In this document: positions 31,616-59,733 of the stretch, in pieces
How positions within the stretch are numbered: position 1 is the stretch's first letter
How the letters are laid out: every line of letters begins with the position of its first letter
From: Collimonas fungivorans
GTDB lineage: Bacteria > Pseudomonadota > Gammaproteobacteria > Burkholderiales > Burkholderiaceae_D
Direction of reading: 5' to 3'
Assembly: GCF_001584145.1 (NCBI RefSeq)
Contig: NZ_CP013232.1
Coordinates: 2,852,001 to 2,916,000, forward strand
DNA length: 64,000 bases
Program-made: the position numbers and the translations under genes
Notes under the pieces: model-generated
Databases searched by the model: none
Told to the model about the DNA's origin: nothing
What the model saw: only the letters and a program-made list of their open reading frames with translations

Positions 31616-32074
31616 CTATATTTCTTTAACCCAACGTTGAGCCTCTTCTCTAATTGCATTATCAAAAAACTGTTTGTCATCTGGTCGCTCTTCCATTTCG
31701 CTCGCAGCATAGATAAAACTATCAAGCTCGTGGAATTCTCGGTCTTGAGCATTAATGGTCGCTCGCCAAATTAAATTTGCACCGTCTAATGGTGAAATTT
31801 TATCGGACAAAATCGAGGACGAAATCTGCTTTGCGTAATGCCTCAAAGCTTCAATCTTCGACATTGCACCGCCACCACCGTTTTTCAGAATTTGTTTAAA
31901 AAATTTCTGAATTTGTTCGGTCTCATTTGGAGAACAGATAGCTAATTGTAAAATCACCTCAGACTCGAAGCCATCAGTAAGTGCGGACCTCGCAAGTTTT
32001 GGCAACTCTGCACTCGGGAGCATTCCCAGCACCCACATTGCCTCAATTTGCAACAAATCAAATGTTTTATTCAT
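31616..32074 (-). CDS. putative immunity protein for RHS1 tip
   Basis: A 152-residue acidic, helical, cytoplasmic protein without signal peptide ([20 protein letters not shown] ... SPLDGANLIWRATINAQDRE ... HELDSFIYAASEMEERPDDK). Its ATG overlaps the stop codon of the RHS gene (ATGA at 32071-32074), so the two are translationally coupled. The position, small size, acidity and AT-rich composition are those of an immunity gene for the variable RHS tip. I cannot name its family with confidence. The immunity role is inferred from context only. Confidence 0.65.
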   Translation of the reverse strand: MNKTFDLLQIEAMWVLGMLPSAELPKLARSALTDGFESEVILQLAICSPNETEQIQKFFKQILKNGGGGAMSKIEALRHYAKQISSSILSDKISPLDGANLIWRATINAQDREFHELDSFIYAASEMEERPDDKQFFDNAIREEAQRWVKEI

Positions 32075-35000
32075 TTAAATTTAAATCCTTCTCGAATACC
32101 GTTCACCAAATTTTGCCAATAATGAATAGTGATATTTTCGCCTGTAGTCAAATTTGTTTGAACATATTGCATTTTCGCCCAAATTTCCTCTGGGTAACGT
32201 GCGTCGTTAATTAATCCCTGCATTATTCTTTGCCCGAGTCCACTTTGCGCGGCCTCCATTGCTAGCTGTTCGGCCAGGTTTACGGCTGCTGTTCTAACAC
32301 CTGTTATAGCGGCTGGCCCAATACAAATACTCGGTCCATTGCCTGTTGAAAAGCAACCATTGTCATCAACTATAGGAGTTGGAAATAGTGGCCCGCAACT
32401 TGTTCCATCGTCAAAAAGGGGATTTCCGCCTGCTTGATAACCTGGCATGAAGCCGCGTAGGCCAAACGGATCAACCCTCGAAATCGGATTTCCCCCGACA
32501 TAGGAATATCCATTGGTTTGTCCGGCATTCCATCCAATTGGGTCCTGCGATACAAACCGTCCCCAAGCCGGTGAGTAATACCGTGCCCGGTAATAATACA
32601 ACCCGATCGCATCATTCTCCCGCCCCGTGTACTGCTGGCTGTTGTCGTTAGTCCCAAGCTGTATCGTATTGCCATAGGCATCGTAGCTGTAACTCGTCAC
32701 CGTCGCCTGCGTCGCGTCCGTCGCCAGAATGACGCTGCCCAGCGCATCGGTCAACATCGTATGATTGCCCGCAGTGCTTTGCCGCGTCAGCACATTGTCA
32801 ACCCCGGGCTCGACGATCAGATTGGCCGTCACCCCGGCGCCGCTGCCGGTGCCGCTCTTCTCCTGCACAAAGTTGATGCCGTCATACAGATACCCGGTCG
32901 AGGTTGTGCCGATCGTCTTGCCTACCCGCCGTCCAAACGCGTCGTACTGGAAACTCGCCGTATTGCCGCCGCCTATGCTCTGCAGCTGGTTCCGTGCATC
33001 CCAGGTATAGGTATTGGTACCGTCGCTGGTCAGATTGCCGTTCGCATCGTACGTCAGCGTCTGCGCACCAAACGTCGTCAACTGGTTCGCTGCATTAAAA
33101 CTGGTCGTGCTCACCGGCGTGCCGGGATTGGTTTGCGCCAGCGATCCACCAACGCCGGTACGGCGTCCCACCGTGTCGTAGGTGTAGCTCAAATCGCCGA
33201 TCGCTGAACCATCCGCCTTGGTGTACGTGATCCCGGTCAGCTGGTTGCCATTGTCATAGCTATAGCCGGCATGGATGCCATTCGGATAGATGCGCTGGGT
33301 CAGGCGGTTGGCGTTGTCGTAGCTATAACCGGTGGTTTGCACCACATTGCCGTTGCTGCTGCCGGCGGCCTGCTGGATCTGCGTCAGCCGGTCCGCCACG
33401 TCGTAGCTATATGTAATCGTCGGCTGGCCGGTGACCGTCAGCGTCAGGCGCCGTCCGCCCGCATCAAATGTCCGGGTAACCGTCCCTTGCGGCGTGGTTT
33501 CGCTCAGTGTCCTGTCCAGCAGATCATAACTGCGCGTGATCGTGCCTGAAACCGAGTCGACGACCTGCGTGAGCCGGTTGCCGTTATCCCAGGTAAATGC
33601 CGTGCTGCTGGCACTACTCGTGCCGCCGGCATTGGCGCCGTAGCTGATGCTGGTGAGGCGCCCCAAGACATCGTAGGTACTGTTGGTGATCTGGCCCTTG
33701 TTATCGATGCTCTGGCTGACCTTGCCGCCCGCCTCATACGATGCCGTGGCCTTGTGCGCCAACGCATCGGTCATGCTGTTCATCCGGTCCCGGCCATCAT
33801 AGGTGAAGCCGGTGGCGTTGTTGTTCTCATCAACCTGGCTCAGCACATTGCCGTTGCCGTCGTAGCTGATCTGCGCCGCCCCGCCCTTGGCATTGGTGAT
33901 CGCCGTCGCACGATCCAGATCGTCATAGCCCACATAGGTGCGATTGCCCAGCATGTCCGTCACGCTGGTCGTACGGCCGATGATGTCGGTGTACGAACTC
34001 ACCGTGCGTCCCAAGGCATCGGTGACTGCCTGCAGATCAGCGCCGGCATAGGCAAAGCTGGTGGCATGGCCCAGCGCATCCTTGACGCTGGTGCGCCGGC
34101 CCTTGCTGTCGTAGGTCATCACCACCGCATGGCCCAGTGCGTCCGTGGCCTGGATCAGGTTGCCCAGGTTGCTATAAGTCAGCGTCGTGCTGTTGCCGTT
34201 CGGATCCGTGATGCTGGTCGGCAGGCTGTACGTCAGGTCATACACGATATTGGTCGTCACCGCATTGCTGGTACCCGACAATTGGGTGATCTGCGTCTTG
34301 TTGCCCAGGCGGTCATACTGGTACGCCGTCACCCGGCCCATGGCATCGGTGCGGCTGTCGAGCAGATGTGTGGTGCTGTTCCAGTTATTGCTCGCCGTTT
34401 GCTGAAGGGACGTACCGAACGCGCTGATGACGCTGGTCGGAGCCCCATTCGTATCGAAGCTATAACGCGTGACCGTACCGCGTTCATCGGTGGCGTCGGT
34501 TTGCAGCACCGTATCGAAACCGGCCGTACTGGTCCCGGTGCCTGTTTGCGACGATTGCAATACATAGCTGAACTGGAAGAACCGGCCATCCGCATAAGTT
34601 TGCTTGCTCAGGCGGCCGTTGCCATCGAAGACATTGGTGGTCTTGACGTTGCCGTTCTTGTCCGTCACCGTCAGCATGTTGGTGCTGGACTTGACGCCGC
34701 CCAGGGAGTGGGCAGGATCGAGCGTCTGCGTCCCATAGGTATATCGGGTGGTCTTGCCTGCCGGATCGGTCACTGTCATCAACCGCCCGCTGGCATCGTA
34801 GGCATAACCGACCGTGCGCGCCAGGTCGTCCTTGACCTGGGTGATGCGGTTGCTTGCATCATAGGTCAGATACACATTGCGTCCGCTCGGCGAAATGATC
34901 TGGGTCAGGTTTGCGTTGGTGCGCACCAGTTGCGTCAGGTTGCCGAAACGGTCCTTCATAGCCAGCATGGCCCCCTGCCGCGCCGTGCCGCTGCCGTCGC

Positions 35001-37770
35001 CGACGCCAGGGAAATAATAGATGTCGCCGGTTTTAAGCGTCACGCTCCAGCTGGCGCCGGGATAGGTGGGATCCCATTTCACAATGGCGCCGTAATACGC
35101 CGTGGTCGGATCCGATGTGCTCTGGAATACCGCATTGGTATAGCCGGTGCCGCCCGAAACACGGACGAAATTGATCTGGCCACCGTCCGGCTTGATCAGC
35201 GCGGCATACGGCAGGATCTGGTCTTTGCTGGTATCGTAGCCGCCGGTCAGGAACATGTCGTAGGACAGGTTCGTACCAATACCGAAGGCGCGGCTGGCGT
35301 CATCGGCCTGGCGGTAACTGCGACTGACCCGGATCGGTACGATGTCGGCGATCGCCAGGTCGGTTTCATGATTGATGAACAGGCCCGAATAGGTATCGAC
35401 CGGATCGGCTGCCTTGCAACCGCAATCCTTCGGGCCAGCGGATGGCGCATTCGTGGAAGGTGCCATTGTGGTGATCATCGCACCGGTAAATTCATAGATG
35501 CGCACATTCGCATCCGGCATCACCTGCTTGCCGTCGGCCGTCACCGTACCCTGGCCGTATTCAAACCAGCCGCGTTTGGCCGCGTCATAATCCCAGAACG
35601 TCATCCGTGTGCCAGGGGCCGCGTGAGGATAGTTTGGATAGACAATTTGCGCACCTTTGGCGCTGGCGGCATTGATGCCTTCCAAGTGCGAGCCACCCGG
35701 CTGCACTGTGAAATACACCGGCACGTTGATATGCGGCAGCGGGAACGGCGGCTGGTTGACCGGCACCGCAGTCATGCTGATTTCAGTGACGATCTTGCCG
35801 TGGGCGTCGCGAATGACCATACCGGCCGGAATCCGCAATTCCAGGCCCGGGATTTGCGGGTTGCTCAATACAGTGTCACCTTGGGTCGGCGAGGCAATCT
35901 TCAGCGTTTGCGGATTCAGGCGCGACATCCAGATCACGAACGGCAGCAAATTGGGCTTGCCAGCTTCCACATTAAACCCATATTCGTAGCGGCCATAGTG
36001 CTGTTCGCCGATGGTCGCCGACTCACCGTCAATGACCAGGATCTGGCGGCCGGACGGCACCGGCGAGAGCGTAAATTCACCATTGTCGTCGGTCTTGACC
36101 TGCCGCTCGCCGATCGAGAGCGTGGCGTTGACCAGCGGTTTGCCATTCAAGCGCAGCACCTGGCCCGAGACCGAGGTCACGCCGGTCGCTACCGGTTCGA
36201 CATTCGGGATCCGTTTCAGGGCGACATCGGCCGGCGTCAGCGACATCAGTTCCGGGTAGCCGTACAGCACACGGCGCAAGGCCAGGTTCTTCGGCAGATG
36301 CTGCTGCGAGACATTGCGGTCGCCGCGTCGCCACTGGCCGTAATGATCGCCCACGCCAGGTACCCACAATTCGCCTTCTTCGGCAGTCGCTTCGCTCGTC
36401 ACCAGGTCATTGGTCGGCGCCTTGGGTGTCGGCACCGGTGCCGCATCCTTGCTGGCGGGACCGCTGCTGGCGCCGGAGGCCGTGCTGCCGTTGCCTGCAG
36501 CTGCTGCACCCTGCACCAAAGTGGCCTGGGCGATGGCGGCAGCAGTGCTTGCCGTATTCAATGCCACCGTCTTGAAACCAACCGCCGTCAACGGCAAGGC
36601 CTGGCCAAACTGATCGGTGGCCCCTTGCACAAACAAGGTATAGGAACTGGCCGGCAGCAATTCCTGTTTCGGTGTCGCAAACAGCAGCACGCCATTGGCG
36701 GCAGCCACCGGCAGCACGCCTACTGCGCCATTCGGCCCCATCAGCGTGACGGTGGCGTTGTTGAACGAGCCGATCGCCATCTTCTGCGAGAAGCGCAGCA
36801 CCACCCGTTGCGCCACCGGCACGTTGGCCGTGCCGCTGGCGGGCGCCTGGCCCAGCACCGCGGGAGCCTCACTACGATTCAGGCCGCCGGCAAGCTGCTG
36901 CACCTGCTCCATCGACAACGGTGCGAACTGGCCGCTCTCGGGTGAGTAGGCTTCCGCTGTCGATTGCACCTGCCCGCTCACCGTAGCGCCGGACCAGACC
37001 AGTACACGATTGTCTGGCAACAGCACGGCGATGGGCGCGATACGGTCGCTGCCCAGCTTGGCGGCGAGACGCTCTATCTTGCGCGACAACGGATCGTAGA
37101 TATCCACGTCGCGGATCGGATTGCCGCGGCCATCGACGCCGCCGGCCAGCAGAACACGGCCGTCCATCAGCACCGTGGCGCTGTGGTCGCTACGCCCTGC
37201 CAGGCCCAGGCTGCCAAGGTCCGTGAACAAACCGGTCGCCGGATCGAACAATTCTGCGTCCGCCAATACCCCGCCATGGCCATCTACGCCGCCCAGCACC
37301 AGCACACGGCCATCAGCGAGCAAGGTCGCGCTATGGCGCGTACGCGCCAGGTGCAGCGTCGCCGGCAAGGCCGTGCGCTGACCATCAACCCCAATCCGCC
37401 AGGCCTGGTTGCCGGCAGCACCGGCACTGGCCCCACCGATGACCAGCCACTGGCCATCCGCCAGCTGCGTGGCGCTTTGCCCGGCAAGCAGCACCGGTTG
37501 TACTGCCAGCAGCCGCGATAGTGCATCAACTGCCGTGGCAGCCGTAGCGGTCGTACTCGCCACAGGCAAGGCCGGTGCCGCTGCCGCTGCCGCCGGCATC
37601 CCCCCTGCACAAACCAGCGCCAGCAACAAGGCGCCGGCAACCCGTCGCGAAACAAACGACGACGCATCCTGCATCATCTTGGTACGTAACGAGTGCTTCA
37701 TGGCGTGGGTGCGTTCCATCATGGAGTGGGAAATGACTTTAAGGTTCTTAGGAAAAATGGCGACCATCAT
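32071..37770 (-). CDS. RHS repeat protein with Kelch-like N-terminus (RHS copy 1)
   Basis: Exported RHS protein of 1899 aa. A hydrophobic signal sequence ([20 protein letters not shown]) follows a polar N-terminus; start at 37770 overlaps the stop of the PPC gene (ATGA), though ATGs at 37719 or 37701 are possible. Kelch-like repeats (about 95-270, [17 protein letters not shown]) come first. Then follow an Ig-like Big_5 type domain (about 310-405), a carboxypeptidase-regulatory-like domain (about 525-590), the DUF6531-type opening [14 protein letters not shown] (about 780), and many YD repeats to about 1690. The RHS core ends in DPFGL (1767-1771). A tip of about 130 residues follows, ending in [20 protein letters not shown]. 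No PAAR or other T6SS domain is present. The tip is probably a toxin, class unknown. Confidence 0.85.
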
Positions 37771-37908
37771 GGCTTCAAACCAAACTGCGTGACAGCAAGC
37801 GTGCCGCTAAAAGAAGTGGCCGCGCTAACCGGAGTAACTAGCAAGGTGTATGTACCCGTCAACGGCAAACCAGTACTCGTGGACGTGACTTCCGGTACAT
37901 TCCAGGTA
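32496..37908. repeat. 5.41-kb direct repeat, copy 1
   Basis: This block recurs at 44890-50300 in the same orientation. Everywhere I compared them the sequences are identical, except for two single-G deletions in copy 2. Copy 1 covers the whole RHS1 gene except its C-terminal tip, plus the last 46 or so codons of the PPC gene upstream. Confidence 0.92.
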
Positions 37909-40900
37909 GCATCTCCCGTAGCCGTCATTGAACTTGTCACCATTGCTCCGTTTGGTCCGATAAGCGAAATACTGATGGGTGAATTTGCCGGGATCGTGGT
38001 AATTCCAGATAGCGTGATATTTAAGTACCATCCCATTGTCCCGGCAAAGGCATAAATCCCGGTTTGGCCCGCCACCTGACTGATGCCAAATTTCGCGCCA
38101 TCGGTCGTCAGCATCCCCGTTGCTGGAGGCAACAGTTGAAGTGCAACCTGGCCTGTTCCACCAGCGTAGGGGATAACGGACACCGTATAAGTGCCGGTTT
38201 GCGACAAGTTGTTGAGTTGTATTTTTCCTGTCGGATTATTGTCGACACTGAAATATTGGGAGGTAACTTGCGAACCATCGGGTGCATAGACATACAGGTA
38301 TGAATAGGTTCCGCTGAAAGTGGCGCCAGTCCATACCAAGCTGTAGTTATCACCAGCCGTGGCGCTAAAGGTGTAACGCGCATTCTGGCCGGCACGTGCC
38401 GTAAACGTAGTCGCCGCAGCATTCGCCGTCAGCACTCCGGTCACTTCGCTCGACAACGTCAATGTCGCTTGCACCGTAGTCGTAGCAGTGGGTGGGGTTA
38501 GCACCAGCGTGTACACTCCTGTCGCTGGCAACACCGGCAAGGTACAACTGCTGTTGGCGCTGAAACTGCTGCAGTTGCTCGTCAATGTCGTGCCATTCGG
38601 CGCAATCACCGACCAGCCGACGGAGCCTCCCGAAGGCGTAATCACCACATTCGCAACGCCTAAACCAAGGCGCTGGCCAACTGCGCCTGTGAACGTGTAT
38701 TGCCCGTTGCCGCCTGCGATCTGATTAATCGCCAGCGGCGCGCCATCGACCGTAAGCACTCCTGTTGCCGGCGACAATAACTGCAACGCAACTTGGCCCG
38801 TCCTGCCCGAATAAGGAACCACGAACACCGTGTAAGTCCCGGTCTGTGGCAAATTATTGAGTTGAATCTTTCCCATCTGGTAATTAGCCGCATCAAAAAA
38901 AGAAGAAGCGACTTGCGAGCCGTCGGGCGCATAGACGTATATGTATGAATAAGATCCATCGAAGGTGGCGCCGGTCCAGGCTAGGCTGTAGTTATCGCCT
39001 GCCGTGGCACTGAAGGTATAACGCGCATTCTGGCCCGCACGTGTCGTCGCAAAGGTGGTTGCCGCAGCATTGGCTGTCAACACCCCGCTCACCTCACTCG
39101 ACAACGTCAATGTCGCCTGTAATGCAGTCGCGACGGAGGATGGCAACAGCACTATTGTGTACGCGCCGGTGGCAGGCAATGCGGGCAAGGTACAACTGCT
39201 GTTGCTGTTGCTGTTGCTGCTGCTGAAACTGCTGCAATTGCTAGACAATGTCGTGCCGTTCGGCGCCATCACCGACCAGTCAATCGAACCTCCGCTTGGA
39301 GTGATCGTGATCCCTGATATACCCAATCCAAGGCGTTGACCAACAGTACCGTTAAACGTGTAACGGCCACCAACGCCAGCCACTTGACTGAGCGCCAGCG
39401 GCGCACCATCGACCACCAATGTCCCCGTCATCTGGGACAACAATTGAATCGCCACCTGTCCGGCGCCACCCAGATAAGGTGCGATAGCTACGGTATAAGC
39501 ACCTGTCTGCGGAAGATTGCTGAACTGAATTTTTCCCATCGAATTATTATCACTAAAATACTGGGAAATAATTTGCGAGCCGTCCGGGGCGTAGACATTC
39601 AAATATGAATTAGATCCTTTGAAAGTAGCGCCGGTCCAAATCAAGGTGTAATTATCCCCGGCTGTGGCGCTGAAGGTATAACGCGCATTCTGTCCGGGAC
39701 GTGCCGTTGTAAAGGTCGTCGCCGCGGCATTCGCCGTCAGCACTCCGCTCACTTCGCTCGACAACGTGAGCGCACCTTGCACGGAAGTCCCGCTACCTGG
39801 CGTCATCGTAACTGTGTACACACCAGCGGAATTCAATTGCGGCAATACACAATTGCTGTTGGCGTTGAAACTGCCGCAATTGAGCAATGTCGCGCCATTC
39901 GGCGCAATCACCGACCAGCTTACCGAACTTCCCGCCGGCGTAATGGTGATATTCGAAATACCCAAGTCAAGATGCTGGCCGACCGTACCGTTAAATGTGT
40001 AGTGGCCAATCGTGCCCGCAGCCTGACCGATCGCCAGAGATGCACCATCGATCACCACGGTTCCATCCGATGTGCCCGATCCCGGAGTGGTCGTTCCCGT
40101 TAAGATCAGCCCTAAAGATACCTGGCCTGTGCTGCCACGATAAGGAACGACAAGTACCGTGAAAACGCCGGTCTGCGCCAAATTAATCAGCTGTAGTGTC
40201 CCCGTCGGATTATTGCCAGCACTAAAATATTGGGAAGCGACTTGCGAACCGTCTGGAGCGTAGATATATAAGTATGAAAAGGATCCATTGAAGGTGGCGC
40301 CGTTCCAGGCCAGATTATAGTTATCGCCAGCCGTGGCACTGAAAGTGTAACGGGCGTTCTGACCGGCACGTGTTGTCGTAAAGGTTGTCGCCGCAGCGTT
40401 GGCTGTCAGCACTCCGCCCGCTTCGCTCGACAACGTCAATGTAGCTTGCACCGCAGTTGCTACGCTCTGCGGCAACAACGCTACCGTATAGATGCCCGTA
40501 GCGGGCAACGGCGGTAATGTACAACTGTTGCTGGCATTGAGACTGCTGCAGTTTGTGGTCAATGTCGTACCATTCGGCCCCATTACCGACCAGCTGACGG
40601 AGCTTCCGGATGGCGTAATGGTGACATCTGAGATACCTAAGCCTAAGCGTTGGCCGACTGTGCCGTTAAACGTGTAGCGGCCACTAACGCCAGCTGCCTG
40701 ATTAATCGCCAGCGACGCACCGTCGATAATCAACGTTCCTGCCGCCGGCGACAGCAATTGAATCGCTACCTGTCCAATTTCACCGAGATAAGGCGCCACG
40801 AATACCGTATAAATGCCGGTCTGGGGCAAGTTGTTGAGCTGGACTTCTCCCGTCGGACTGCTTTGCGCGCTGAAATTGGCAGAAGAAATTTGTGAACCGT

Positions 40901-43502
40901 CTGGAGCATAGACAGTCAGAGCATTATTGTAATTATTGAAAGTTGCACCGATCCACGTCAAGCTGTAGTTATCGCCAGCAGTCGCATTGAACGTATAACG
41001 GGCGTTCTGGCCCGGACGTGTCGTCGCAAAATTTGTCACCGTAGCATTCGGTGTCAGCATACCACCCACTTCACTCGACAATGTTAATGTGGCTTGTAGC
41101 GCAGTCGCTATATCAGGTGGTAGCAATGCCACCGTATAGATACCGGCGGCGGGCAACGCTGGCAGTATACAACTGCTGTTCGCCGTAAAAGATCCGTTGC
41201 AGGTTGTCAATGTCGCCCCGTTAGGCGCAATGATTGACCAACTTACTGAGTGCCCGGCTGGTGTGATAGAAACATTTGAGATGCCCAAGCCTAGACGCTG
41301 TCCGACCGTACCGTTAAACGTGTAGCTGCCGCTAACACCAGCTGCTTGATTGAGTGCCAGCGACGCACCGTCGACCGTCAACGTTCCTGTTGCCGGCGAC
41401 AACAACTGAATCGCTATCTGCCCGGTGCCACCCAGATAAGGCGCGACCACTACGGAATAAGTACCTGTTTGCAGCAGGTTGCTGAGTTGGATCTTTCCTG
41501 CCGGATTATTATCCGCACTAAAATACTGAGAGACAATTTGCGAACCGTCCGGGGCGTAGACATTCAAATATGAATAAGATCCTTTGAAAGTGGCGCCGGT
41601 CCAGATCAAGGTGTAATTATCTCCGGCCGCGGCACTGAAGGTATAGCGCGCATTCTGCCCTGCACGCGTGGTCGCGAAAGGCGTCGCCGTGGCATTCGGA
41701 GTCAGTACTCCACCCGCTTCGCTCGATAACGTCAGTGTAGCTTGTATCGCTGTTGTTATATCAGGCGGCACCATCGCCACCGCGTATACACCTGCAACAG
41801 GCAGCGCTGGTAGTGTACAACTACTATCTGCACTAAAATTGCTGCAAGTCGTCAATGTCGTGCCGTTCGGCGCAATTACCGACCAGCTTACTGAGCGTCC
41901 GGCCGGCGTGACGACTACGTTTGAAATACCTAAACTAAGGTGCTGACCCAACGTGCCGTTAAATGTGTAATGACCGCTGACGCCAACTGCCTGATTGAGA
42001 GGCAGTGGCGTACCATTAATCGTCAACACACCTGTGGCCTGCGACAACAACTGGATCGCAACCTGTCCGATGCCGCCGCTATCCGGAGTGACCAGTACCG
42101 TATAAGTACCGCTCTGCGACAAACTGCTGAGCTGTATTGCCCCAGTTGAATCGCTGCCGCCGCTGAAATACTTTGAAACCATTTGTGAGCCGCCTGGCGC
42201 GTAGACGTTCAGGGTATTGTAGGAGCCGGCGAAGGTGGCGCCAGCCCAAGTTAGCGTGTAATTATCGCCAGCGGCTCCGCTAAAAGTATAACGAGCGCTT
42301 TGCCCCACCCGCGTCGTTGCAAATGTTGTCGCCACAGTATTGGGCGTGAGAATACCTGCAACCGCACTCGACAACAGCAACTGCATATTTACTGTATGAC
42401 TGCTGTCGATATAGAACAAAATTCGATACGCACCTGTTTGCGGTAAGGCAGCAAATGAGCATTTTCCAACGCCGGAGAGCGTACAGGTACTTACGACACT
42501 CCCCGTGGGACCATAGAGCTGGATCGATACGGAACCTGAGCCGCTTGGCGTAGGCGCATACGCAGACATTCCGAGGCTGAGTTGCTGACCCGCAGTGCCG
42601 TCAAACAGCAACATGGCATATTTTCCTGCGGTGGCAATGGCAGGTGTTACCGCATCGCCGTCAATGACGATGCGCCCAGTAGCCACGACATCAGCCACCG
42701 CAATATTGGAAGGAACAACAAAAAAATCTGTAGTGCTCGTGCCGGTACCTGCCGAGGTCTGTATAGTGACTTTCCCGGACTGTGCAGCGTTCGGCACCGT
42801 CATGACAGCCTGGCTTGGGGCTGTCAACGCCGTAATGATTCCACTGACATTACCAATGTACGCTTTGCTCTTGCCTGCACCTGCCTGGAAATTGGTCCCG
42901 TTGACAGTCACCGTCGTACCCGCAGCACCGACGGCCGGGGTAAAGCTGATAACAGTCGGCGTCGACAAGTCCGATCCGACCGTAAATGGCTGGGTCGAGG
43001 TGGCGCTACCATTCGTGTTGCTGACTTTGATCAGGCCAGTGGTGGCTGTTGCAGACACCGTCAGGCTGAGCTGCGTCGCACTGGCTGCCGTCACGGTGGC
43101 GGCAATATCGTTGATGGTGACGGTGTTGGATGCTGCGGCTGTACTAAAACCGCTGCCAAAGACGGTAACGTTGGTGCCGGCAGCACCGGAGGTGGGCGTA
43201 AAACTGGTGATGGCCAGGGTATTGACGGTATTGGCCTTGACCGCAGTGATATGGCCAACCGCATCATAGGCGTATTGGGTGCTGCCGCCATCGGCGGCAA
43301 TCACTTGCACCAGGCGGCCAAGTTCATCATAGACATAATTCACGCCGGCGGCATGAGCGGCGCTGGTACAACTAAGAACACAAGCTAGAATGAATAGCAG
43401 ATAGGGTCGTAATGTACGCGGCAAGAACGTCGACCATGCTGAAAAACCTGTTTGCGCAACGTACTGCACGCGGCATGTCGCCGCGCGGTTTGAATTCGCC
43501 AT
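37767..43502 (-). CDS. giant exported PPC-repeat protein with IPT/TIG domains (PPC1)
   Basis: Exported protein of 1911 aa; ATG at 43502 follows an AGGGAGCAGGGCAG ribosome site. A signal peptide ([17 protein letters not shown]) ends near residue 52. One RHS-like YD pair follows ([18 protein letters not shown]). Two IPT/TIG Ig-like domains lie at about 95-265 ([20 protein letters not shown] and [19 protein letters not shown]). After a first beta-domain there are seven tandem units of about 225 aa. Each unit pairs two sandwich domains resembling bacterial pre-peptidase C-terminal (PPC) domains ([16 protein letters not shown] ... [13 protein letters not shown]). No membrane anchor or sorting signal is visible. 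The stop overlaps the RHS start, so both proteins are made together. Probably an extracellular stalk or carrier. Confidence 0.8.
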
Positions 43503-43774: not shown

Positions 43775-43950
43775 CAATCAATATTCCGCTATCAGTCGCA
43801 CTATTAATCGTCGTCGCTTGATTATTCGCATCGAGTTATCGTATCAACTCACTGGCAACATCGGCCAATCCCGCACTATTTCACTCTTGTCACGTTCTGA
43901 TAAAACCGATTTGTCAGGATTTAAGCTGCTTACTGACATCTTCTAAAAGG
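43775..43950. other. AT-rich gap before the pentapeptide gene
   Basis: AT-rich spacer between the duplicated PPC1 leader and the 3' end of the pentapeptide gene; no gene or RNA recognised. Any PPC1 promoter should lie here or in the adjoining leader. Confidence 0.35.
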
Positions 43951-44370: not shown

Positions 44371-44428
44371 AACTTTTCCCATGAATAACAAACTACAAAA
44401 TTATACAAACACATGATTTGCGTATCAG

Positions 44429-50162: not shown

Positions 50163-50300
50163 GGCTTCAAACCAAACTGCGTGACAGCAAGCGTGCCGCT
50201 AAAAGAAGTGGCCGCGCTAACCGGAGTAACTAGCAAGGTGTATGTACCCGTCAACGGCAAACCAGTACTCGTGGACGTGACTTCCGGTACATTCCAGGTA
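44890..50300. repeat. 5.41-kb direct repeat, copy 2
   Basis: Same sequence as 32496-37908 with two single-G deletions, 5411 against 5413 bases. Both ends are sharp: one a few codons before the RHS core/tip junction, the other inside the last codons of the PPC gene. Confidence 0.92.
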
Positions 50301-50717
50301 ATCGCCCCAGTGGCTGTCACGGAACTACTGAGCGTTACCCCGTTAGGTCCAATGATCGAGATGGTGGCTGATGAATTTGCAGGTGTTATTGCGACACCGG
50401 ATAGCACGATCTTCAAGTACTGGCCTGCCGTCCCGGCGAAAGAATATGAGCCGTTTTGTCCTACCACTTGATTGACGGTCAATGGCGTACCGTCGATCGT
50501 CAACGTTCCCGTCGCAGGCGACAATAACTGCAACGCAACCTGTCCCGCACCGCCTAAATAAGGCACCACAAACACCGAATACGTACCGCTCTGCGACAAA
50601 TTATTGAGCTGTATTTTCCCCGACGGCGTAGCAGTCCCGAAACTACCTGAAATGACTTGCGAACCATCCGGCGCATAAACATACAGATAAGAAGTGCCGT
50701 TGAAAGTGGTACCAGTC

Positions 50718-52933
50718 CAGAGCAAGGTGTAGTTATCGCCAGCCGTGGCACTAAAGGTGTAACGCGCATTCTGACCCGCACGTGTCGTCGCAAAGGTCGT
50801 TGCCGCAGCATTCGCCGTCAGCATCCCCGTCACTTCGCTCGACAACGTCAATGCCGCTTGCACCGTAGTCGTAGCAGTGGGTGGGGTTAGCACCAGCGTG
50901 TACACTCCTGTCGCTGGCAACACCGGCAAGGTACAACTGCTGTTGGCGCTGAAACTGCTGCAGTTGCTCGTCAATGTCGTACCATTCGGCGCCATCACCG
51001 ACCAGGTGATTGAGCCACCCGCCGGCGCGATGGCAACACCGGAAACACCCAAGCCCAGGCGTTGACCAACAGTACCGTTAAACGTGTACTGACCATTGGC
51101 GCCAGCCGCTTGATTGATTGCCAACGGCGCACCGTCGATCGTCAACGTTCCCGTCGCCGGCGACAATAACTGCAATGCAACCTGCCCCGTACCGCCTTGA
51201 TAGGGCACTACGAACACTGAATACGTGCCAGTCTGCGACAAATTACTGAGCTGGATTTTACCCGTCGGGTAGCTAACAGCATTGAAATATGAAGAAGTAA
51301 CTTGCGAGCCGTCGGGCGCATAGACGTATAGATATGGATAGGATCCACTGAAAGTCGCACCAGTCCAAGCCAAGGTGTAGTTGTCTCCAGTCGTGGCATT
51401 GAAGGTATAACGCGCATTCTGGCCCGCACGTGTCGTCGCAAAGGTCGTTGCCGCAGCATTCGCCGTCAGCACCCCGGTCACTTCGCTCGACAACGTCAAT
51501 GTCGCTTGCACCGTAGTCGTGGCAGTGGATGGCGTCAGCACCAGCGTGTACACGCCAGTAGCCGGTAACGCTGGCAAGGTACAACTGCTATTGGTGCTGA
51601 AACTGCTGCAGTTGCTCGTCAATGTCGTGCCGTTCGGCGCCATCACCGACCAGGTGATTGAGCCACCCGCCGGAGCGATGGCGACACCGGAAACACCCAA
51701 ACCCAGGCGTTGACCAACGGTGCCGTTGAACGTGTACTGACCATTGGCGCCAGCCGCTTGATTGATTGCCAGCGGTGCACCGTCGATCGTCAACGTTCCC
51801 GTCGCCGGCGATAATAACTGCAACGCAACCTGCCCCGCACCGCCTTGATAGGGCACCACGAATACCGAATACGTACCGCTCTGTGTCAAATTGTTGAACT
51901 GAAGCTTACCTGTCGGGTAGCTTGCTCCAAAATAAGGAGAAGAGATGACTTGTGAACCGTCCGGTGCATAAACGTACACATAAGAGTACGAACCAATAAA
52001 GGTATTGCCAGTCCAGGCCAAGGTGTAGTTGTCACCAATCGTGGCATTGAAGGTATAACGCGCATTCTGTCCGGCACGTGTCGTTGCAAAGGTCGTCGCC
52101 GCGGCATTCGCTGTCAGCACCCCGGTCACTTCGCTCGACAATGTCAATGTCGCTTGCACCGCAGTCGTGGCAGTGGATGGAGTTAGCACCACCTTGTATG
52201 CGCCATTGGCAGGCAATGCTGGCAGCGTGCAATTGTTGTTGGTGCTGAAACTGTTGCAATTGGCTAGCGTCGCACCATTCGGCGCCACCACCGACCAGGT
52301 GATTGAGCCACCCGCCGGAGCGATGGTGACACCGGAAACACCCAAGCCCAGGCGTTGACCAACAGTACCGTTAAACGTGTACTGACCATTGGCGCCAGCC
52401 GCTTGATTGATTGCCAACGGCGCACCGTCGATCGTCAACGTTCCCGTCGCCGGCGACAATAACTGCAATGCAACCTGCCCCGTACCACCTAAATAAGGCA
52501 CCACAAACACCGAATACGTGCCGCTCTGCGTCAAATTGTTGAGCTGGATTTTACCCGTCGGGTAGCTAACAGCATTGAAATATGAAGAAGTAACTTGCGA
52601 GCCGTCGGGCGCATAGACGTATAGATATGGATAAGATCCACTGAAAGTCGCACCAGTCCAAGCCAAGGTGTAGTTGTCTCCAGTCGTGGCATTGAAGGTA
52701 TAACGCGCATTCTGGCCCGCACGTGTCGTCGCAAAGGTCGTCGCCGCGGCATTCGCTGTCAGCACCCCGGTCACTTCGCTCGACAACGTCAATGTCGCTT
52801 GCAGCGCAGTCGTGGCAGTGGATGGAGTCAGCACTACCGTATATGTACCGGTGGCATTCAACTGCGGCAGCACACAATTGCTGCCAGCGCTAAAACTATT
52901 GCAATTGACCAGCGTCGTACCATTCGGCGCAAT
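50718..52933. repeat. 2.2-kb internal repeat of PPC2, copy 1
   Basis: Aligns with 55896-58111 at a constant offset of 5178 bases, with only scattered differences and a few short mosaic patches. It spans about three and a quarter PPC units. Confidence 0.85.
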
Positions 52934-55895
52934 GATTGACCAGCTTACAGAACTTCCCGCTGGTGTAATCGTGATCCCTGATATGCCCAAACCAAGCCGT
53001 TGCCCAGCTGTGCCGTTGAACGTGTATTGACCATTGGCGCCTGCCGCCTGATTGATTGCCAACGGCGCACCGTCGATCGCCAACGCTCCCGTCGCTGGCG
53101 ATAACAACTGCAACGCAACCTGCCCCACACCACCTAAATAAGGCACCACAAACACCGAATACGTACCAGTCTGCGACAAGTTGTTGAGCTGGATTTTGCC
53201 CGTCGGGCTGCTGACGCCGAAATAAGGGGCCGCAATTTGCGAACCATCTGGCGCATAAACATACAGGTAAGACCAAGTGCCTGGGAAGGTGGCGCCTGTC
53301 CACGCCAAGGTATAGTTATCTCCTGCCGTGGCATTGAAGGTATAGCGCGCATTCTGTCCGGCACGTGTCGTTGCAAAGGTCGTCGCCGCGGCATTCGCTG
53401 TCAGCACTCCGGTCACTTCGCTCGACAACGTCAATGTCGCTTGCACCGTAGTCGTGGCAGTGGATGGAGTTAGCACCACCTTGTATGCGCCATTGGCAGG
53501 CAATGCCGGCAGCGTGCAATTGTTGTTGGTGCTGAAACTGTTGCAATTGGCTAGCGTCGCACCATTCGGCGCCACCACCGACCAGGTGATTGAGCCACCC
53601 GCCGGCGCGATAGTGACACCGGAAACACCCAAGCCCAGGCGTTGACCAACAGTACCGTTAAACGTGTACTGACCATTGGCGCCAGCCGCTTGATTGATTG
53701 CCAACGGCGCACCGTCGATCGTCAACGTTCCCGTCGCCGGCGATATTAACTGCAACGCAACCTGCCCCGTACCGCCTTGATAGGGCACTACGAACACTGA
53801 ATACGTGCCAGTCTGCGACAAATTACTGAGCTGGATTTTACCCGTCGGGTAGCTAACAGCATTGAAATATGAAGAAGTAACTTGCGAGCCGTCGGGCGCA
53901 TAGACGTATAGATATGGATAAGATCCACTGAAAGTCGCACCAGTCCAGACCAAGGTGTAGTTATCACCAGCCGTGACATTGAAGGTATAACGCGCGTTCT
54001 GGCCCGCACGTGTCGTCGCAAAGGTCGTTGCCGCAGCATTCGCCGTCAGCACTCCGGTCACTTCGCTCGACAATGTTAACGTACCTTGCACGGCAGTACC
54101 GCTGCTCGGCACTAGTACCATTGTGTATATGCCGGTTGCATTTAGTTTCGGCAGTACGCAACTGCCGCTGCTGGTTCCGAAACTTCCACAGTTAATTAAT
54201 GTCGCTCCATTCGGAGCAATGACTGACCAGCTTATTGACCCTACGGCGGAAGTAAGAGTGATACCCATGCCAAGTTGTTGGCCGATTGTGCCGTTAAAAG
54301 AATAACGGCCACTGACCCCAAGGGCCTGATTAATCGCCAAAGACGCGCTGTCAGCCACTACGGTTCCATTCGACGTTCCCGTGCCAGGAGTGGTCGTGCC
54401 TGCCAACGCCACTCCTAAAGATATTCTTCCCACACTGGTCAAATACGGATCAACAAAAATGGTGTATGTGCCGGTTTGCTGTAAATTATTCAACATCAAA
54501 CTCGCACTGGCACTATTGCCAAACGATGAGGAACCAACAATGCTGCCATCGGGTGCGTATACGGTCAGAGCGTTGCCCGATGCTGCTAATGTTGAATCAG
54601 TCAGACTCAAAGATAAATTCTGTTCCATCGTCGCGTTGAACGTATAACGCCCATTCTGACCAGCACGTGTTATTACAAACGCTGTCGCCGGTGCACCCAC
54701 AGTAAACGTTCCTGTGCTATCAGAAGACAACGTGAGATTTGCTGTCAGTGCTGCAGTGGGTGTCGATGGCGTAATTAATATCGTGTAAACCCCGTTCGCT
54801 GGCAACACAGGTAGATTGCAACTCGCGTCTGCGGAGAATCCACTACAACTAATCAGTGTAGTACCAGTGGGAGTAATAATTGACCACCCCATTGAACTAC
54901 CCGACGGGGTGATGGTGGCACCGGAAACACCCAAGCCAAGGCGTTGACCAACAGAGCCGCTAAACGTGTATTGACCATTGGCGCCAGCCGTCTGATTGAT
55001 TGCCAGCGGTGCACCGTCGATCGTCAACGTTCCCGTCGCTGGCGATAATAACTGCAACGCAACCTGCCCCACACCGCCTTGATAGGGCACCACAAACACC
55101 GAATACATACCACTCTGCGACAAATTGCTGAACTGGATTTTTCCCGTCGGGGTATTGGCAGCACTGAAGTTGATGGAAGTTACCAACGAGCCGTCTGGCG
55201 CGTAGATATACAGGTAAGACCAGGTCCCACTGAAGGTAGTGCCAGTCCAAGTCAAGACGTAGTTATCACCAGTCGTGGCATTGAATGTGTAGCGCGCATT
55301 TTGTCCCGCACGTGTCGTCGCAAAGGTCGTTGCCGCAGTATTCGCCGTCAGCATCCCGGTCACTTCGCTCGACAATGTCAATGTCGCTTGCACTGCTGTC
55401 GCGGAGCTCGATGGCACTAAAGCTACCGTATACACGCCTGTGGCAGGTAGTGCCGGTAGCGTACAGTTGCTGTTGGCGCTGAAACTGCTGCAGTTGGTCG
55501 TCAACGTCGTACCATTCGGCGCCATCACCGACCAGGTGATTGAGCCACCCGCCGGCGCGATGGTGACACCGGAAACACCCAAGCCCAGGCGTTGACCAAC
55601 AGTACCGTTAAACGTGTACTGACCATTGGCGCCAGCCGCTTGATTGATTGCCAACGGCGCACCGTCGATCGTCAACGTTCCCGTCGCCGGCGACAATAAC
55701 TGCAATGCAACCTGCCCCGTACCGCCTTGATAGGGCACCACAAACACCGAATACGTACCGCTCTGCGACAAATTGCTGAGCTGGATTTTGCCCGCCGGGC
55801 TATTAGCAGCATTGAAGTTGATGGAAGTCACCAGCGAGCCGTCTGGCGCGTAGACATACAGGTAAGACCAGGTGCCACTGAAGGTAGTGCCAGCC

Positions 55896-58111
55896 CAGAG
55901 CAAGGTGTAGTTATCGCCAGCCGTGGCACTGAAGGTATAACGCGCATTCTGACCCGCACGTGTCGTCGCAAAGGTCGTTGCCGCAGCATTCGCCGTCAGC
56001 ATCCCCGTCACTTCGCTCGACAACGTCAATGCCGCTTGCACCGTAGTCGTAGCAGTGGGTGGGGTTAGCACCAGCGTGTACACTCCTGTCGCTGGCAACA
56101 CCGGCAAGGTACAACTGCTGTTGGCGCTGAAACTGCTGCAGTTGCTCGTCAATGTCGTACCATTCGGCGCCATCACCGACCAGGTGATTGAGCCACCCGC
56201 CGGCGCGATGGTGACACCGGAAACACCCAAGCCCAGGCGTTGACCAACAGTACCGTTAAACGTGTACTGACCATTGGCGCCAGCCGCTTGATTGATTGCC
56301 AACGGCGCACCGTCGATCGTCAACGTTCCCGTCGCCGGCGACAATAACTGCAATGCAACCTGCCCCGTACCACCTAAATAAGGCACCACAAACACCGAAT
56401 ACGTGCCGCTCTGCGACAAATTACTGAGCTGGATTTTACCCGTCGGATAGCTAACAGCATTGAAATATGAAGAAGTAACTTGCGAGCCGTCGGGCGCATA
56501 GACGTATAGATATGGATAGGATCCACTGAAAGTCGCACCAGTCCAAGCCAAGGTGTAGTTGTCTCCAGTCGTGGCATTGAAGGTATAACGCGCATTCTGG
56601 CCCGCACGTGTCGTCGCAAAGGTCGTTGCCGCAGCATTCGCCGTCAGCACCCCGGTCACTTCGCTCGACAACGTCAATGTCGCTTGCACCGTAGTCGTGG
56701 CAGTGGATGGCGTCAGCACCAGCGTGTACACGCCAGTAGCCGGTAACGCTGGCAAGGTACAACTGCTATTGGTGCTGAAACTGCTGCAGTTGCTCGTCAA
56801 TGTCGTGCCGTTCGGCGCCATCACCGACCAGGTGATTGAGCCACCCGCCGGAGCGATGGCGACACCGGAAACACCCAAACCCAGGCGTTGACCAACGGTG
56901 CCGTTGAACGTGTACTGACCATTGGCGCCAGCCGCTTGATTGATTGCCAGCGGTGCACCGTCGATCGTCAACGTTCCCGTCGCCGGCGATAATAACTGCA
57001 ACGCAACCTGCCCCGCACCGCCTTGATAGGGCACCACGAATACCGAATACGTACCGCTCTGTGTCAAATTGTTGAACTGAAGCTTACCTGTCGGGTAGCT
57101 TGCTCCAAAATAAGGAGAAGAGATGACTTGTGAACCGTCCGGTGCATAAACGTACACATAAGAGTACGAACCAATAAAGGTATTGCCAGTCCAGGCCAAG
57201 GTGTAGTTGTCACCAATCGTGGCATTGAAGGTATAACGCGCATTCTGTCCGGCACGTGTCGTTGCAAAGGTCGTCGCCGCGGCATTCGCTGTCAGCACCC
57301 CGGTCACTTCGCTCGACAATGTCAATGTCGCTTGCACCGCAGTCGTGGCAGTGGATGGAGTTAGCACCACCTTGTATGCGCCATTGGCAGGCAATGCTGG
57401 CAGCGTGCAATTGTTGTTGGTGCTGAAACTGTTGCAATTGGCTAGCGTCGCACCATTCGGCGCCACCACCGACCAGGTGATTGAGCCACCCGCCGGAGCG
57501 ATGGTGACACCGGAAACACCCAAGCCCAGGCGTTGACCAACAGTACCGTTAAACGTGTACTGACCATTGGCGCCAGCCGCTTGATTGATTGCCAACGGCG
57601 CACCGTCGATCGTCAACGTTCCCGTCGCCGGCGACAATAACTGCAATGCAACCTGCCCCGTACCACCTAAATAAGGCACCACAAACACCGAATACGTGCC
57701 GCTCTGCGTCAAATTGTTGAGCTGGATTTTACCCGTCGGATAGCTAACAGCATTGAAATATGAAGAAGTAACTTGCGAGCCGTCGGGCGCATAGACGTAT
57801 AGATATGGATAAGATCCACTGAAAGTCGCACCAGTCCAAGCCAAGGTGTAGTTGTCACCAGTTGTGGCATTGAAGGTATAACGGGCATTCTGGCCCGCAC
57901 GTGTCGTCGCAAAGGTGGTCGCCGCAGCGTTCGCCGTCAGCACTCCGGTCACTTCGCTCGACAACGTCAATGTCGCTTGCAGCGCAGTCGTGGCAGTGGA
58001 TGAAGTCAGCACTACCGTATATGTACCGGTGGCATTCAACTGCGGCAGCACACAATTGCTGCCGGCGCTAAAACTATTGCAATTGACCAGCGTCGTACCA
58101 TTCGGCGCAAT
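55896..58111. repeat. 2.2-kb internal repeat of PPC2, copy 2
   Basis: Partner of 50718-52933, same orientation and no net length change. Patches of mismatch beside long identical runs suggest gene conversion between PPC units. Confidence 0.85.
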
Positions 58112-59733
58112 CACCAACCATCCCATTGAACCGCCAGCTGGCGTGAACGCGACGCCTGACATCCCCAGGCCAAGCCGTTGTCCAGCTGTACCGTTGAACG
58201 TGTAACGGCCGCTGGCGCCTGCCACCTGGCTGATCGCCAGCGGCGCACCGTCGATCGTCAACGCTCCCGTCGCCGGCGACAGCAACTGCAGCGCCACCTG
58301 CCCGGTTCCTGCCGTATAGGGAATGACGGTAACCGTATAAGCACCGGTCTGTGGCAAATTGCTAAGCTGGATGATGCCGCTCGGACCGCTGGCGCCGAAA
58401 TAAGGAGCAGCTATCTGCGTGCCATTTGGCGCATAGACATACAGGTAAGACCAAGTGCCAGGGAAGGTGGCGCCTGTCCACGTCAAACTGTAGTTATCTC
58501 CTGCTGTCGCATTGAATGTATAACGAGCGGTCTGCCCGGCCCGCGTGGTCGCAAACGTGCTTGCCACCGCATTCGGCGTGAGGACGCCGGTAACCGCACT
58601 CGATAGCAGCAGGCTCATGCTTGCCGTGTGACTGCTGTCGATACCGACCAGGATCCTATACACACCGGTTTGCGGCAAAGCTGCAAACAAACATTTGTCC
58701 ACTCCGGAGAACGAACAAGTAGTGACTATGCTGCCGGTGGGACCATAGAGCCGGATCGAGACTGTTCCCGAACCGCTCGGCGCGGGCGTAAACGTAGACA
58801 TCCCGAGACTGAGTTGCTGACCGGCAGTACCGTCAAACAGCAACATGGCATATTTGCCTGCGGTGCCAATGGCAGGTGTTGCTGCAGCACCATCTGTCAC
58901 GATGCGTCCGGTAGCCACGACATCGGCCACCGCAATGCCGGATGGAACAACAAAAAAATCCGCACTGCTCGTGCCGGCACCTGCGACAGTCTGTAACGCG
59001 ATCTTCCCGGACTGGCCGCGCTCGGCACCGTCACCACAACCTGGTTCGGCGCCGTCGAACCCGTAAGAATTCCGCCGACATTCCCAAAAAATACCTTGTT
59101 GTTAGCCGTTCCGGCCTGGAAATTGGTCCCGTTGACGGTCACCGCCGTGCCTGCCGCGCCGATGGCAGGCGTAAAGCTGGTAATGGTCGGCGCCGACAAG
59201 TTCGATCCGACTGTAAAGGTCTGGGTCGAGATGACACTACCATTCGCATTGCTGACTTTGATCAGGCCAGTTGTAGCTGCTGCAGGTACCGTCAGGCTGA
59301 GCTGCGTCGCACTGGCTGCCGTCACGGTGGCAGCGATATCGTTGATGGTGACGGTATTGGATGCTGCCGTCGTACTAAAACCGCTGCCGAAGAGGGTGAC
59401 GTTGGTGCCGGCAGCACCGGAGGTAGGGGCAAAACTGTTGATGGCCAGGGTATTGACGGTATCGGCCTTGACCGCGGTAATATTGCCGGCCGCATCGTAG
59501 GCGTATTGCGTGCTGCTGCCATCGGCGGCGATCACTTGCACCAGGCGGCCAAGTTCATCATAGACATAATTCACGCCGGCGGCATGGGCGATGCTACTAC
59601 AACTCAGGATACAAGCCAGGACGAGGAGCAGATGAGATCGCAACATACGTTGCAAGAATATTAACCACTCTGAAAAAGCGGTTTGCGCAACGTACTGCAC
59701 GCGACATGTCGCCGCGCGGTTCGAATTCGCCAT

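What the first reader, a model, noticed from the sequence alone, without database searches (positions are those of the whole stretch)
31616..59733. Two tandem cassettes of giant PPC protein + coupled RHS protein + small variable gene
In transcription order: PPC2-RHS2-pentapeptide gene, then PPC1-RHS1-small acidic gene. Each PPC stop overlaps the RHS start (ATGA), so the two giant proteins are made as a pair. The PPC protein itself begins with one RHS-type YD repeat and then IPT/TIG and PPC-type domains. I know of RHS toxins delivered by T6SS (PAAR-linked) or by Gram-positive WapA. A Sec-exported RHS coupled to a multi-kilobase PPC-repeat partner is not a described system that I recognise. The partner could be a surface stalk, a carrier or a receptor.
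Basis: partly seen in the sequence, partly recalled or inferred. Interest (0 to 1): 0.85.

Follow-up and report, generated by a model that had tools for sequence, protein, structure and literature searches.

The report
Two-gene RHS toxin with haem enzyme
A soil bacterium (Collimonas) carries toxin-like exported proteins encoded beside a giant stalk-like partner, and in related bacteria the pair usually travels with a haem enzyme of a kind known to chemically remodel other proteins, hinting at a toxin system matured by protein oxidation.

Summary
The RHS genes agree in 5248 of 5250 columns, then diverge at the DPxGL junction into low-GC tips, each followed by its own small gene: a classical RHS polymorphic toxin pattern. 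The PPC-RHS linkage is not chance: 27 of 30 resolvable PPC-head genes are followed by an RHS gene, and, three weak kelch-only hits aside, the same 15 of 392 family genomes hold both. New here: a di-haem enzyme of the MauG/CCP family. Its ortholog (at least 350 bits) is at the locus in 22 of 23 cassette genomes, in 0 of 4 with odd heads and 0 of 98 without a cassette. In 9 of 23 genomes, this one included, a type-II-secretion-like operon adjoins. Best reading: a Sec-exported two-partner RHS toxin, oxidatively matured by the haem enzyme and in part of the lineages exported by that operon. Linkage is shown; maturation, export and toxicity are inferred. Sec-exported RHS toxins as such are known.

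The parts
31616..32074 (-). small gene 1 (152 aa), candidate immunity gene of RHS1
   Evidence: overlaps RHS1 stop by ATGA; GC 41.0% against 61.3% for the RHS core; no Pfam family above cut-off, no NCBIfam or PADLOC match; 22 database proteins including itself, none with a Pfam domain
32071..37770 (-). RHS1 (1899 aa): signal-like N-terminus, kelch, Ig-like, CarboxypepD_reg-like, DUF6531, RHS repeats, Rhs core, variable tip
   Evidence: predicted structure of an N-terminal part, mean pLDDT 72.3
32074..32457 (-). C-terminal tip of RHS1 after DPFGL (128 aa), candidate toxin domain
   Evidence: differs from the RHS2 tip although the cores agree; low GC; no Pfam match, no database relative at E 1e-5
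37767..43562 (-). PPC1 (1931 aa): signal-like N-terminus, one YD repeat, two TIG domains, PPC repeats (8 Pfam stretches, 11 hits of a simple repeat motif)
   Evidence: head predicted at mean pLDDT 85.7
43951..44391 (-). pentapeptide-repeat gene (146 aa), candidate immunity gene of RHS2
   Evidence: starts 37 nt after RHS2; GC 43.1%
44429..50162 (-). RHS2, interrupted: three open frames 48792-50162, 47641-48828, 44429-47650
   Evidence: two one-base length differences against RHS1 over 5250 aligned columns
44432..44851 (-). C-terminal tip of RHS2 (140 aa), hydrophobic near its end
   Evidence: no Pfam match; GC 45.6%
50159..59772 (-). PPC2, interrupted: head 58897-59772 and repeat part 50159-58930 (2923 aa, 26 hits of the simple repeat motif, long internal DNA repeats)
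59985..60542 (-). ORF between the pilin-like genes and PPC2, no Pfam family
60903..61421 (-). pilin-like protein (N_methyl) of the type-II-like operon
61418..63835 (-). secretin (secretin and cohesin matches; TPR below cut-off) of the type-II-like operon; the operon continues outside the window with T2SSE- and T2SSF-like genes and, at its far end, the MauG-family gene (L069:9872-11113, minus strand)

Best explanation
Each cassette is a Sec-exported polymorphic toxin made of two partners. The RHS protein forms the usual YD cage that encloses a swappable C-terminal tip, with immunity encoded just downstream. The YD-TIG-PPC protein is its constant export and display partner: a YD/TIG head on a stalk of variable length that carries the RHS cage outside the cell. 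A dedicated MauG-subfamily di-haem enzyme in the periplasm oxidatively modifies Tyr or Trp residues of the stalk and/or the RHS N-terminal region before export. In Collimonas and some other lineages the adjoining type-II-like operon carries the pair across the outer membrane. Shown by sequence: gene pairing, tip exchange, linkage with the haem enzyme, linkage with the secretion operon in part of the lineages. Inferred: stalk role, binding through the YD head, substrate of the enzyme, route of export, toxicity of tips, protection by the small genes.
For: PPC and RHS heads are found in the same 15 of 392 family genomes, three weak kelch-only RHS hits aside; 27 of 30 resolvable PPC-head loci are followed by RHS on the same strand. 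RHS1 and RHS2 agree up to the core-tip border and differ after it, with low-GC tips and small genes; tips differ between relatives, two of ten with weak, below-cut-off Pfam matches to phospholipase A2 and DUF4258; orphan RHS pieces lie downstream in G697 and G197. MauG profile of at least 350 bits: 22 of 23 cassette genomes, 0 of 4 with a half or reversed head, 0 of 98 without a cassette; 9 of the 22 were not used to build the profile. MauG was not found in five fetched copies of the secretion operon that lie away from a cassette, so it goes with PPC-RHS rather than with the operon. The operon adjoins PPC or RHS in 9 of 23 genomes, among them G697 of another family, where it lies on the RHS side. 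The best PDB match of the MauG profile is 6e1c, entered as 'Di-heme enzyme', which I recall to be MbnH, an enzyme that oxidises a Trp of its partner protein.
Against: No biochemical evidence. In 14 of 23 cassette genomes the secretion operon was not seen at the locus, and secretins of this class occur also in 11 of 18 genomes without a cassette; the adjoining secretin of G117 is itself interrupted. G723 has the pair but no MauG ortholog (assembly 87% complete). Two PPC genes of G117 have no RHS, and G406 has the order reversed. The head domain occurs in the wider database on other stalks, whose gene neighbours I could not read. The MauG profile was built from linked genes, which favours them; the 350-bit line was set after seeing the scores, and G488 and G638 (352 bits) stand only about 40 bits above the best unlinked homolog (310). 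Many cassette genomes are close kin, so the counts are not independent events.
Confidence: 0.5

Rival explanations
1. The PPC protein is an adhesin or surface component that merely shares an operon and export route with an RHS toxin; the two do not bind each other, and the MauG-family protein is a peroxidase that protects the export line.
For: PPC and TIG domains are general secreted-protein modules, and the head occurs on other stalks in the database; the CCP_MauG family includes peroxidases (PMC6405878 passages).
Against: Same 15 genomes of 392 for PPC and RHS; the linked enzymes lack the Met that stands at the aligned place in the peroxidases printed, and their ortholog at 350 bits was not found in 98 genomes without the cassette.
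Confidence: 0.25
2. The PPC protein is a receptor or anchor on the producing cell to which the RHS toxin docks, as proposed for MafA with MafB in Neisseria; it is not co-exported as a stalk.
For: Constant upstream gene plus polymorphic toxin, as in MafA/MafB (PMC3482391 passage).
Against: I saw no lipobox or membrane anchor in the PPC termini printed (by eye; no predictor was run); the stalk length varies about four-fold, 773 to 3210 aa.
Confidence: 0.15
3. The locus is decaying or mis-assembled: nearly identical tandem repeats, with cassette 2 dead or an artefact of consensus errors.
For: Three frame breaks in cassette 2 only, two of them within near-identical DNA; two RHS-less PPC genes beside what look like mobile-element remnants in G117.
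Against: Cassette 1 is intact; unbroken pairs exist in relatives; tips and small genes of the two cassettes differ, so cassette 2 is not a pure duplicate artefact.
Confidence: 0.1

Closest known systems
RHS polymorphic toxins with a signal peptide (the 'T2SS/Sec' class of PMC3482391)
   Same: Signal-like start, RHS repeats, conserved core, variable C-terminal domain, downstream candidate immunity gene
   Different: Constant YD-TIG-PPC partner gene directly upstream and a linked di-haem enzyme; the Table 1 passage of PMC3482391 lists no signature neighbour genes for the Sec class, and the words PPC, kelch, TIG domain and cytochrome do not occur in the part of the text held
Bacterial teneurin-like proteins (PMC13018210)
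   Same: Exported YD shell with a variable, toxic C-terminus and immunity genes (abstract and passages); RHS1 matches PDB chains 9pt5 and 9ifo, named teneurin-like
   Different: Kelch at the N-terminus and no NHL match in the Pfam scan; separate PPC partner; haem enzyme; that paper states no obvious delivery machinery for its proteins
T6SS Rhs effectors (e.g. 8qja; 7q97 is entered as Rhs family protein)
   Same: RHS cage and core: best PDB sequence matches of RHS1
   Different: Signal-like N-terminus and kelch instead of PAAR; no T6SS family in the nine neighbours scanned
MafA/MafB of Neisseria
   Same: Constant exported protein encoded upstream of a Sec-exported polymorphic toxin (PMC3482391 passage)
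   Different: MafA is described there as a lipid-anchored surface protein; here a giant PPC-repeat protein with a YD head; no haem enzyme in the passage read
MauG / MbnH di-haem enzymes
   Same: PF03150 domain, two CxxCH, linked to conserved exported partners
   Different: E-x-x-Y-R in the 22 of 23 linked rows that one search printed, where the unlinked homologs G208, G175 and G406 have E-F-Y-x-x-G-G; the neighbours are a toxin pair, not MADH or MbnP (the last two recalled)

Membership tests
RHS polymorphic toxin | YD/RHS repeats followed by the Rhs-associated core | tested here: met
   PF05593 with 19 stretches; TIGR03696 at 80.3 bits against cut-off 32.5
RHS polymorphic toxin | C-terminal tip exchanged while the core is conserved | tested here: met
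   RHS1/RHS2: 5248 of 5250 columns identical, then divergent tips; differing tips in relatives
RHS polymorphic toxin | tip is toxic and downstream gene gives immunity | not testable with these tools
   position, overlap and low GC only
T6SS PAAR-Rhs effector | N-terminal PAAR domain / T6SS neighbours | tested here: not met
   no PAAR match at E up to 1 in RHS1; no T6SS family in the nine neighbours scanned
Bacterial teneurin-like protein | FN-plug, NHL and YD-shell domains (PMC13018210) | tested here: inconclusive
   no NHL family in the Pfam scan of RHS1, kelch at the N-terminus instead; model of that region has mean pLDDT 72.3; the authors' own profiles were not available
Tc toxin B/C component | SpvB/TcdB domain | tested here: not met
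   no such Pfam match in RHS1 at E up to 1
MauG/bCCP superfamily (linked enzyme) | PF03150 and two CxxCH motifs | tested here: met
   PF03150 in the nine linked proteins given to Pfam; 26 of 26 rows with two CxxCH
canonical bacterial cytochrome c peroxidase | Met ligand of the electron-transfer haem | tested here: not met
   aligned residue is Glu in the linked enzymes; that this is the ligand place is my inference from the alignments and from Met280/His204 of NgBCCP in PMC10094543 (passages)
true MauG | Tyr ligand of the six-coordinate haem; mau operon | tested here: inconclusive
   Glu at the aligned place with an invariant Tyr three residues on; no structure; a mau operon was not searched for
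MauG-type protein-modifying enzyme | oxidises Trp/Tyr of a partner protein | not testable with these tools
   linkage only
Type II secretion system | secretin, T2SSE, T2SSF and pseudopilins in one operon | tested here: met
   secretin and N_methyl in the window, T2SSF in L069; T2SSE shown by Pfam in the ortholog of G186 (L050) and carried over to L069 by similarity
Type II secretion system | exports PPC and RHS | not testable with these tools
   neighbourhood only

The most novel reading that the evidence does not exclude
The MauG-subfamily enzyme installs an oxidative Tyr/Trp modification, possibly a covalent cross-link, that locks the YD head of the PPC stalk to the RHS cage (or arms the cage), so that a polymorphic toxin is delivered as a covalently joined two-protein weapon. 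This would be a toxin delivery system that depends on MauG-type protein radical chemistry, run by a di-haem enzyme with Glu at the place where its relatives have the Met or Tyr haem ligand.
Probability: 0.17. Interest if true: 0.92.

Novelty: new variant of a known kind. Interest (0 to 1): 0.72.

Why it matters
How teneurin-like RHS toxins are delivered is stated as open in PMC13018210 (passage). This locus offers a testable answer for one lineage of exported RHS proteins: a dedicated partner protein and, in 9 of 23 genomes, a neighbouring secretion operon. It also gives a small, clear set of candidate substrates for a MauG-family subfamily, and would link that chemistry to bacterial toxins, a link that I did not find in print (one search returned no paper for MauG with YD repeat).

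Tried and rejected
PADLOC gave no match for either small gene; NCBIfam gave none for small gene 1 and only below-cut-off matches, chiefly pentapeptide families, for the other. A database search with the RHS1 tip found no relative; the relatives of small gene 1 have no Pfam domain and no telling name. PPC1 has no PDB sequence match. The fold search of its head finds IPT domains of plexin and Met, glycan-binding proteins and cyclodextrin glucanotransferases in the 50 rows shown, with low TM-scores, and says nothing on the YD part. The fold search of the RHS N-terminal model finds kelch and galactose-oxidase-like propellers in the rows shown. I considered that the YD always sits at the mature N-terminus as a donor strand: other sequence precedes it in G153, G697 and G488. 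I considered ATGA coupling as general: it is not, gaps reach a few hundred bases in other genomes. I considered the conserved FWxYD...GWxxYG motif of the RHS N-terminal region as the target of the enzyme: of 13 rows looked at, only G723, which lacks MauG, has lost both the first Trp and the last Tyr, but G697 has Phe at the first place although it has MauG, and one case is no test. The idea that MauG belongs to the secretion operon was rejected because five copies of that operon away from a cassette have none in the stretches read. The scan of genome contigs gave only three loci. Paper searches without a paper to the point: no paper; listings; two papers were opened, PMC6405878 and PMC10094543; led to PMC13018210 and PMC3482391.
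Full report
WHAT IS THERE. The window is G000:C1:2852001-2916000, in a one-contig genome of 5.6 Mb. The nearest named locus is of Collimonas silvisoli, 90% identical over the RHS N-terminal region, on a contig of the same length as that of G186, which the tool puts in the same genus as the window; so the host is taken as a Collimonas. On the minus strand, in transcription order, stand a type-II-like secretion operon (its secretin 61418-63835 and a pilin-like gene 60903-61421 lie in the window), PPC2, RHS2, a pentapeptide-repeat gene, PPC1, RHS1 and a 152-aa gene. Cassette 1 is intact. Cassette 2 is interrupted: PPC2 runs in two frames and RHS2 in three. Over the 35 bins of 150 columns from the RHS start to near the tip, RHS1 and RHS2 agree in 5248 of 5250 columns, the two exceptions being one-base length differences. 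Both fall near runs of at most three equal bases, so homopolymer error is not an obvious cause, but a near-perfect 5-kb repeat is a place where consensus errors happen. I cannot tell real breaks from errors.

RHS AS A POLYMORPHIC TOXIN. RHS1 has a signal-like start, kelch repeats, a Big_5 Ig-like domain, a match to CarboxypepD_reg below the curated cut-off, DUF6531, 19 RHS-repeat stretches and the Rhs-associated core. The model of a 698-residue N-terminal part (mean pLDDT 72.3) shows a run of strands in the kelch region, an Ig-like domain, a disordered linker and further beta domains; the Foldseek rows shown are kelch and galactose-oxidase-like propellers. Right after the DPFGL junction the two RHS proteins part company. 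GC falls from 61.3% in the RHS1 core to 44.2% and 45.6% in the tips and 41.0% and 43.1% in the small genes. RHS1 and its small gene overlap by ATGA. Tips of relatives differ widely; of ten tips given to Pfam, two had a match, phospholipase A2 (E 0.0009) and DUF4258 (E 4e-5), both below the curated cut-off. Orphan RHS pieces lie downstream in G697 and G197. This is the pattern of RHS toxins with exchanged tips and immunity genes; toxicity and immunity are inferred.

THE PPC PARTNER. PPC1 has a signal-like start, one YD repeat, two TIG stretches and PPC repeats. By a simple motif count PPC1 has 11 repeat hits and the PPC2 repeat part 26, and PPC2 contains long exact internal DNA repeats. The head was predicted with mean pLDDT 85.7: four strands for the YD part, then beta domains where the TIG matches lie. 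In the PPC proteins printed the YD motif mostly follows the signal-like stretch directly; other sequence precedes it in G153, G697 and G488.

CONSERVED PAIRING. A query of the RHS N-terminal region hit 18 of 392 genomes of the family at E <= 1e-20; three of these (G009, G113, G285) are weak kelch-only matches that I did not follow. A profile of the PPC head hit 15 of the 392 genomes at E <= 1e-25, exactly the other 15. In 399 genomes of the order (some of the same family) the head hit 10 besides G000 and the RHS query 9 besides G000, of which three (G460, G545, G668) are weak kelch-only; the other six are all among the ten. In 229 genomes of the class the head hit only G804 and G861 besides G000, both weakly; in G804 short SP-YD-TIG genes alternate with RHS pieces. 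Only two RHS candidates per genome were scored, so RHS genes without PPC could have been missed. Reading the loci: 35 PPC-head loci were seen, counting G778 and G779. In five the contig ends inside the PPC gene (G153, G258, G697, G488, G779), and in each of these genomes another contig carries RHS directly after a PPC end. Of the other 30, 27 are followed by RHS on the same strand; three of these (G642, G751, G412) are RHS proteins only distantly like RHS1 and without its N-terminal part, the RHS of G197 lies in two frames, and the PPC head of G343 is split. The exceptions are two more PPC genes of G117, beside what look by eye like mobile-element remnants, and G406, where the RHS gene comes first. 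Tandem cassettes also occur in G234 and G323.

THE DI-HAEM ENZYME. Next to the PPC gene of many relatives lies a gene of the CCP_MauG family (PF03150). In the present genome, G117 and G186 it stands at the far end of the secretion operon, about 10 kb from PPC; in G488 it lies about 1.4 kb beyond RHS, with an ORF between; in the other 18 genomes with it, it is beside the PPC head. A profile from 14 linked genes (13 genomes) was run on 45 genomes: at least 350 bits in 22 of 23 cassette genomes (not in G723, 87% complete), in 0 of 4 genomes with half or reversed heads (best 310 bits, G406, about 108 kb from its RHS) and in 0 of 18 without a cassette (best 308). Nine of the 22 were not used in the profile and score 352 to 577; some of these are close kin of profile members, and G488 and G638 stand only about 40 bits above the best unlinked homolog. 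The 350-bit line was drawn after seeing the scores. A further 80 genomes without a cassette gave at most 301 bits. Thus 22 of 23 against 0 of 98. In a tree of 26 rows the unlinked homologs of G208, G175 and G406 are one side of a branch (support 100/100), but several long branches make the placing unsure. The linked enzymes carry E-x-x-Y-R (22 of 23 linked rows; G779 was not caught by the pattern used) where those three carry E-F-Y-x-x-G-G and where the peroxidases of the printed PDB alignments carry Met. From the alignments, and from Met280/His204 of NgBCCP in PMC10094543 (passages), I infer that this is the ligand place of the second haem; that MauG has its Tyr there is recalled, in keeping with the Tyr-His ligation given in PMC6405878 (passages). 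The best PDB match is 6e1c, which I recall as MbnH. Loci with only half a YD head (G642, G751, G412) belong to genomes without such an enzyme at 350 bits.

THE SECRETION OPERON. A secretin and pilin-like genes, with T2SSE- and T2SSF-like genes where the stretch read reaches them, adjoin PPC or RHS in G000, G117, G186, G153, G197, G078, G778, G779 and, on the RHS side, G697 (there only secretin, pilin-like genes and one further operon gene were read): 9 of 23 genomes. The secretin of G117 is interrupted. All 23 have a secretin of this class somewhere at E <= 1e-30, but so do 11 of the 18 controls. Copies away from a cassette in G175, G130, G343, G258 and G001 have no MauG within the stretch read; the one in G175 is flanked by other YD-repeat ORFs. 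Adjacency suggests, and does not show, that PPC and RHS are its cargo.

MECHANISM, IN STEPS. (1) PPC and RHS are made together (overlap or short gap: shown by sequence) and exported by Sec (signal-like starts, no predictor run). (2) In the periplasm the di-haem enzyme oxidises Tyr/Trp of one or both (inferred from linkage and family). Candidate residues are the three Tyr invariant in 12 PPC heads and three Trp invariant in 14 RHS N-terminal regions; with more rows two of these Trp stay invariant in the 13 rows and one does not. (3) The pair leaves through the type-II-like system where it adjoins, elsewhere by an unknown route (inferred). (4) The PPC stalk displays the RHS cage; its length runs from 773 to 3210 aa in the uncut PPC genes read next to kelch-type RHS. 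(5) The tip acts on a competitor, and the small gene protects kin (inferred from the RHS family).

WHAT IS KNOWN. PMC3482391 (passages) lists signal-peptide RHS toxins as a class and describes MafA upstream of MafB. PMC13018210 (abstract, passages and one section) describes surface-exposed teneurin-like toxins without obvious delivery machinery. PMC6405878 (passages and one section) maps the CCP_MauG superfamily and a MauG-like enzyme, BthA, found beside a putative phosphatase. I found no paper that links MauG to YD-repeat proteins (no paper) or RHS to type II secretion and PPC (no paper); searches on MauG with type II secretion and on Collimonas with Rhs gave listings without an apparent link, which I did not open. 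The library holds open-licence papers alone. So the toxin is of a known kind; the constant PPC partner and the linked di-haem enzyme make it a new variant.

Noticed in passing
L047, L049, L056, L059, L061 (two), L067, L075: C-termini of RHS proteins: Eight of the 20 tips printed (some from near-identical genes of kin) end in a C-x-C type motif, such as CGCK, ECGCD or CKCK, although the tips otherwise differ; RHS1 has CGCK just before DUF6531. Meaning unknown.
   Followed up: no
G000:C1:3132018-3139910 and 3174786-3181694; G000:C1:107201-109864: The same genome has two very long open frames (3402 and 5034 aa) and a 1560-aa frame with YD-repeat similarity to RHS1 at 26-44% identity.
   Followed up: no
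L122 (G804:C1:275000-294999): Outside the order, three nearly equal 149-aa SP-YD-TIG genes lie in tandem, two of them followed by partial RHS genes, downstream of a 1909-aa RHS frame: perhaps a minimal head plus orphan-tip array.
   Followed up: partly
L112 (G175:C23:126000-145999): A genome of the same genus without the cassette has the same kind of secretion operon flanked by several other YD-repeat ORFs.
   Followed up: partly
L114 (G343:C12), 13414-20000: The secretion operon of G343 that lies away from its cassette is followed by an ORF of at least 2195 aa of unknown kind; giant exported proteins may be usual cargo of this operon.
   Followed up: no
L077 (G117:C1:3080000-3099999): Two PPC genes without RHS beside fragments that look by eye like integrase and transposase, next to a normal cassette.
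   Followed up: partly
window 50159-58930: PPC2 contains internal DNA repeats: 1605 pairs of exact 60-mers recur at an offset of 5178 bases, none in PPC1; recent expansion or an assembly matter.
   Followed up: no
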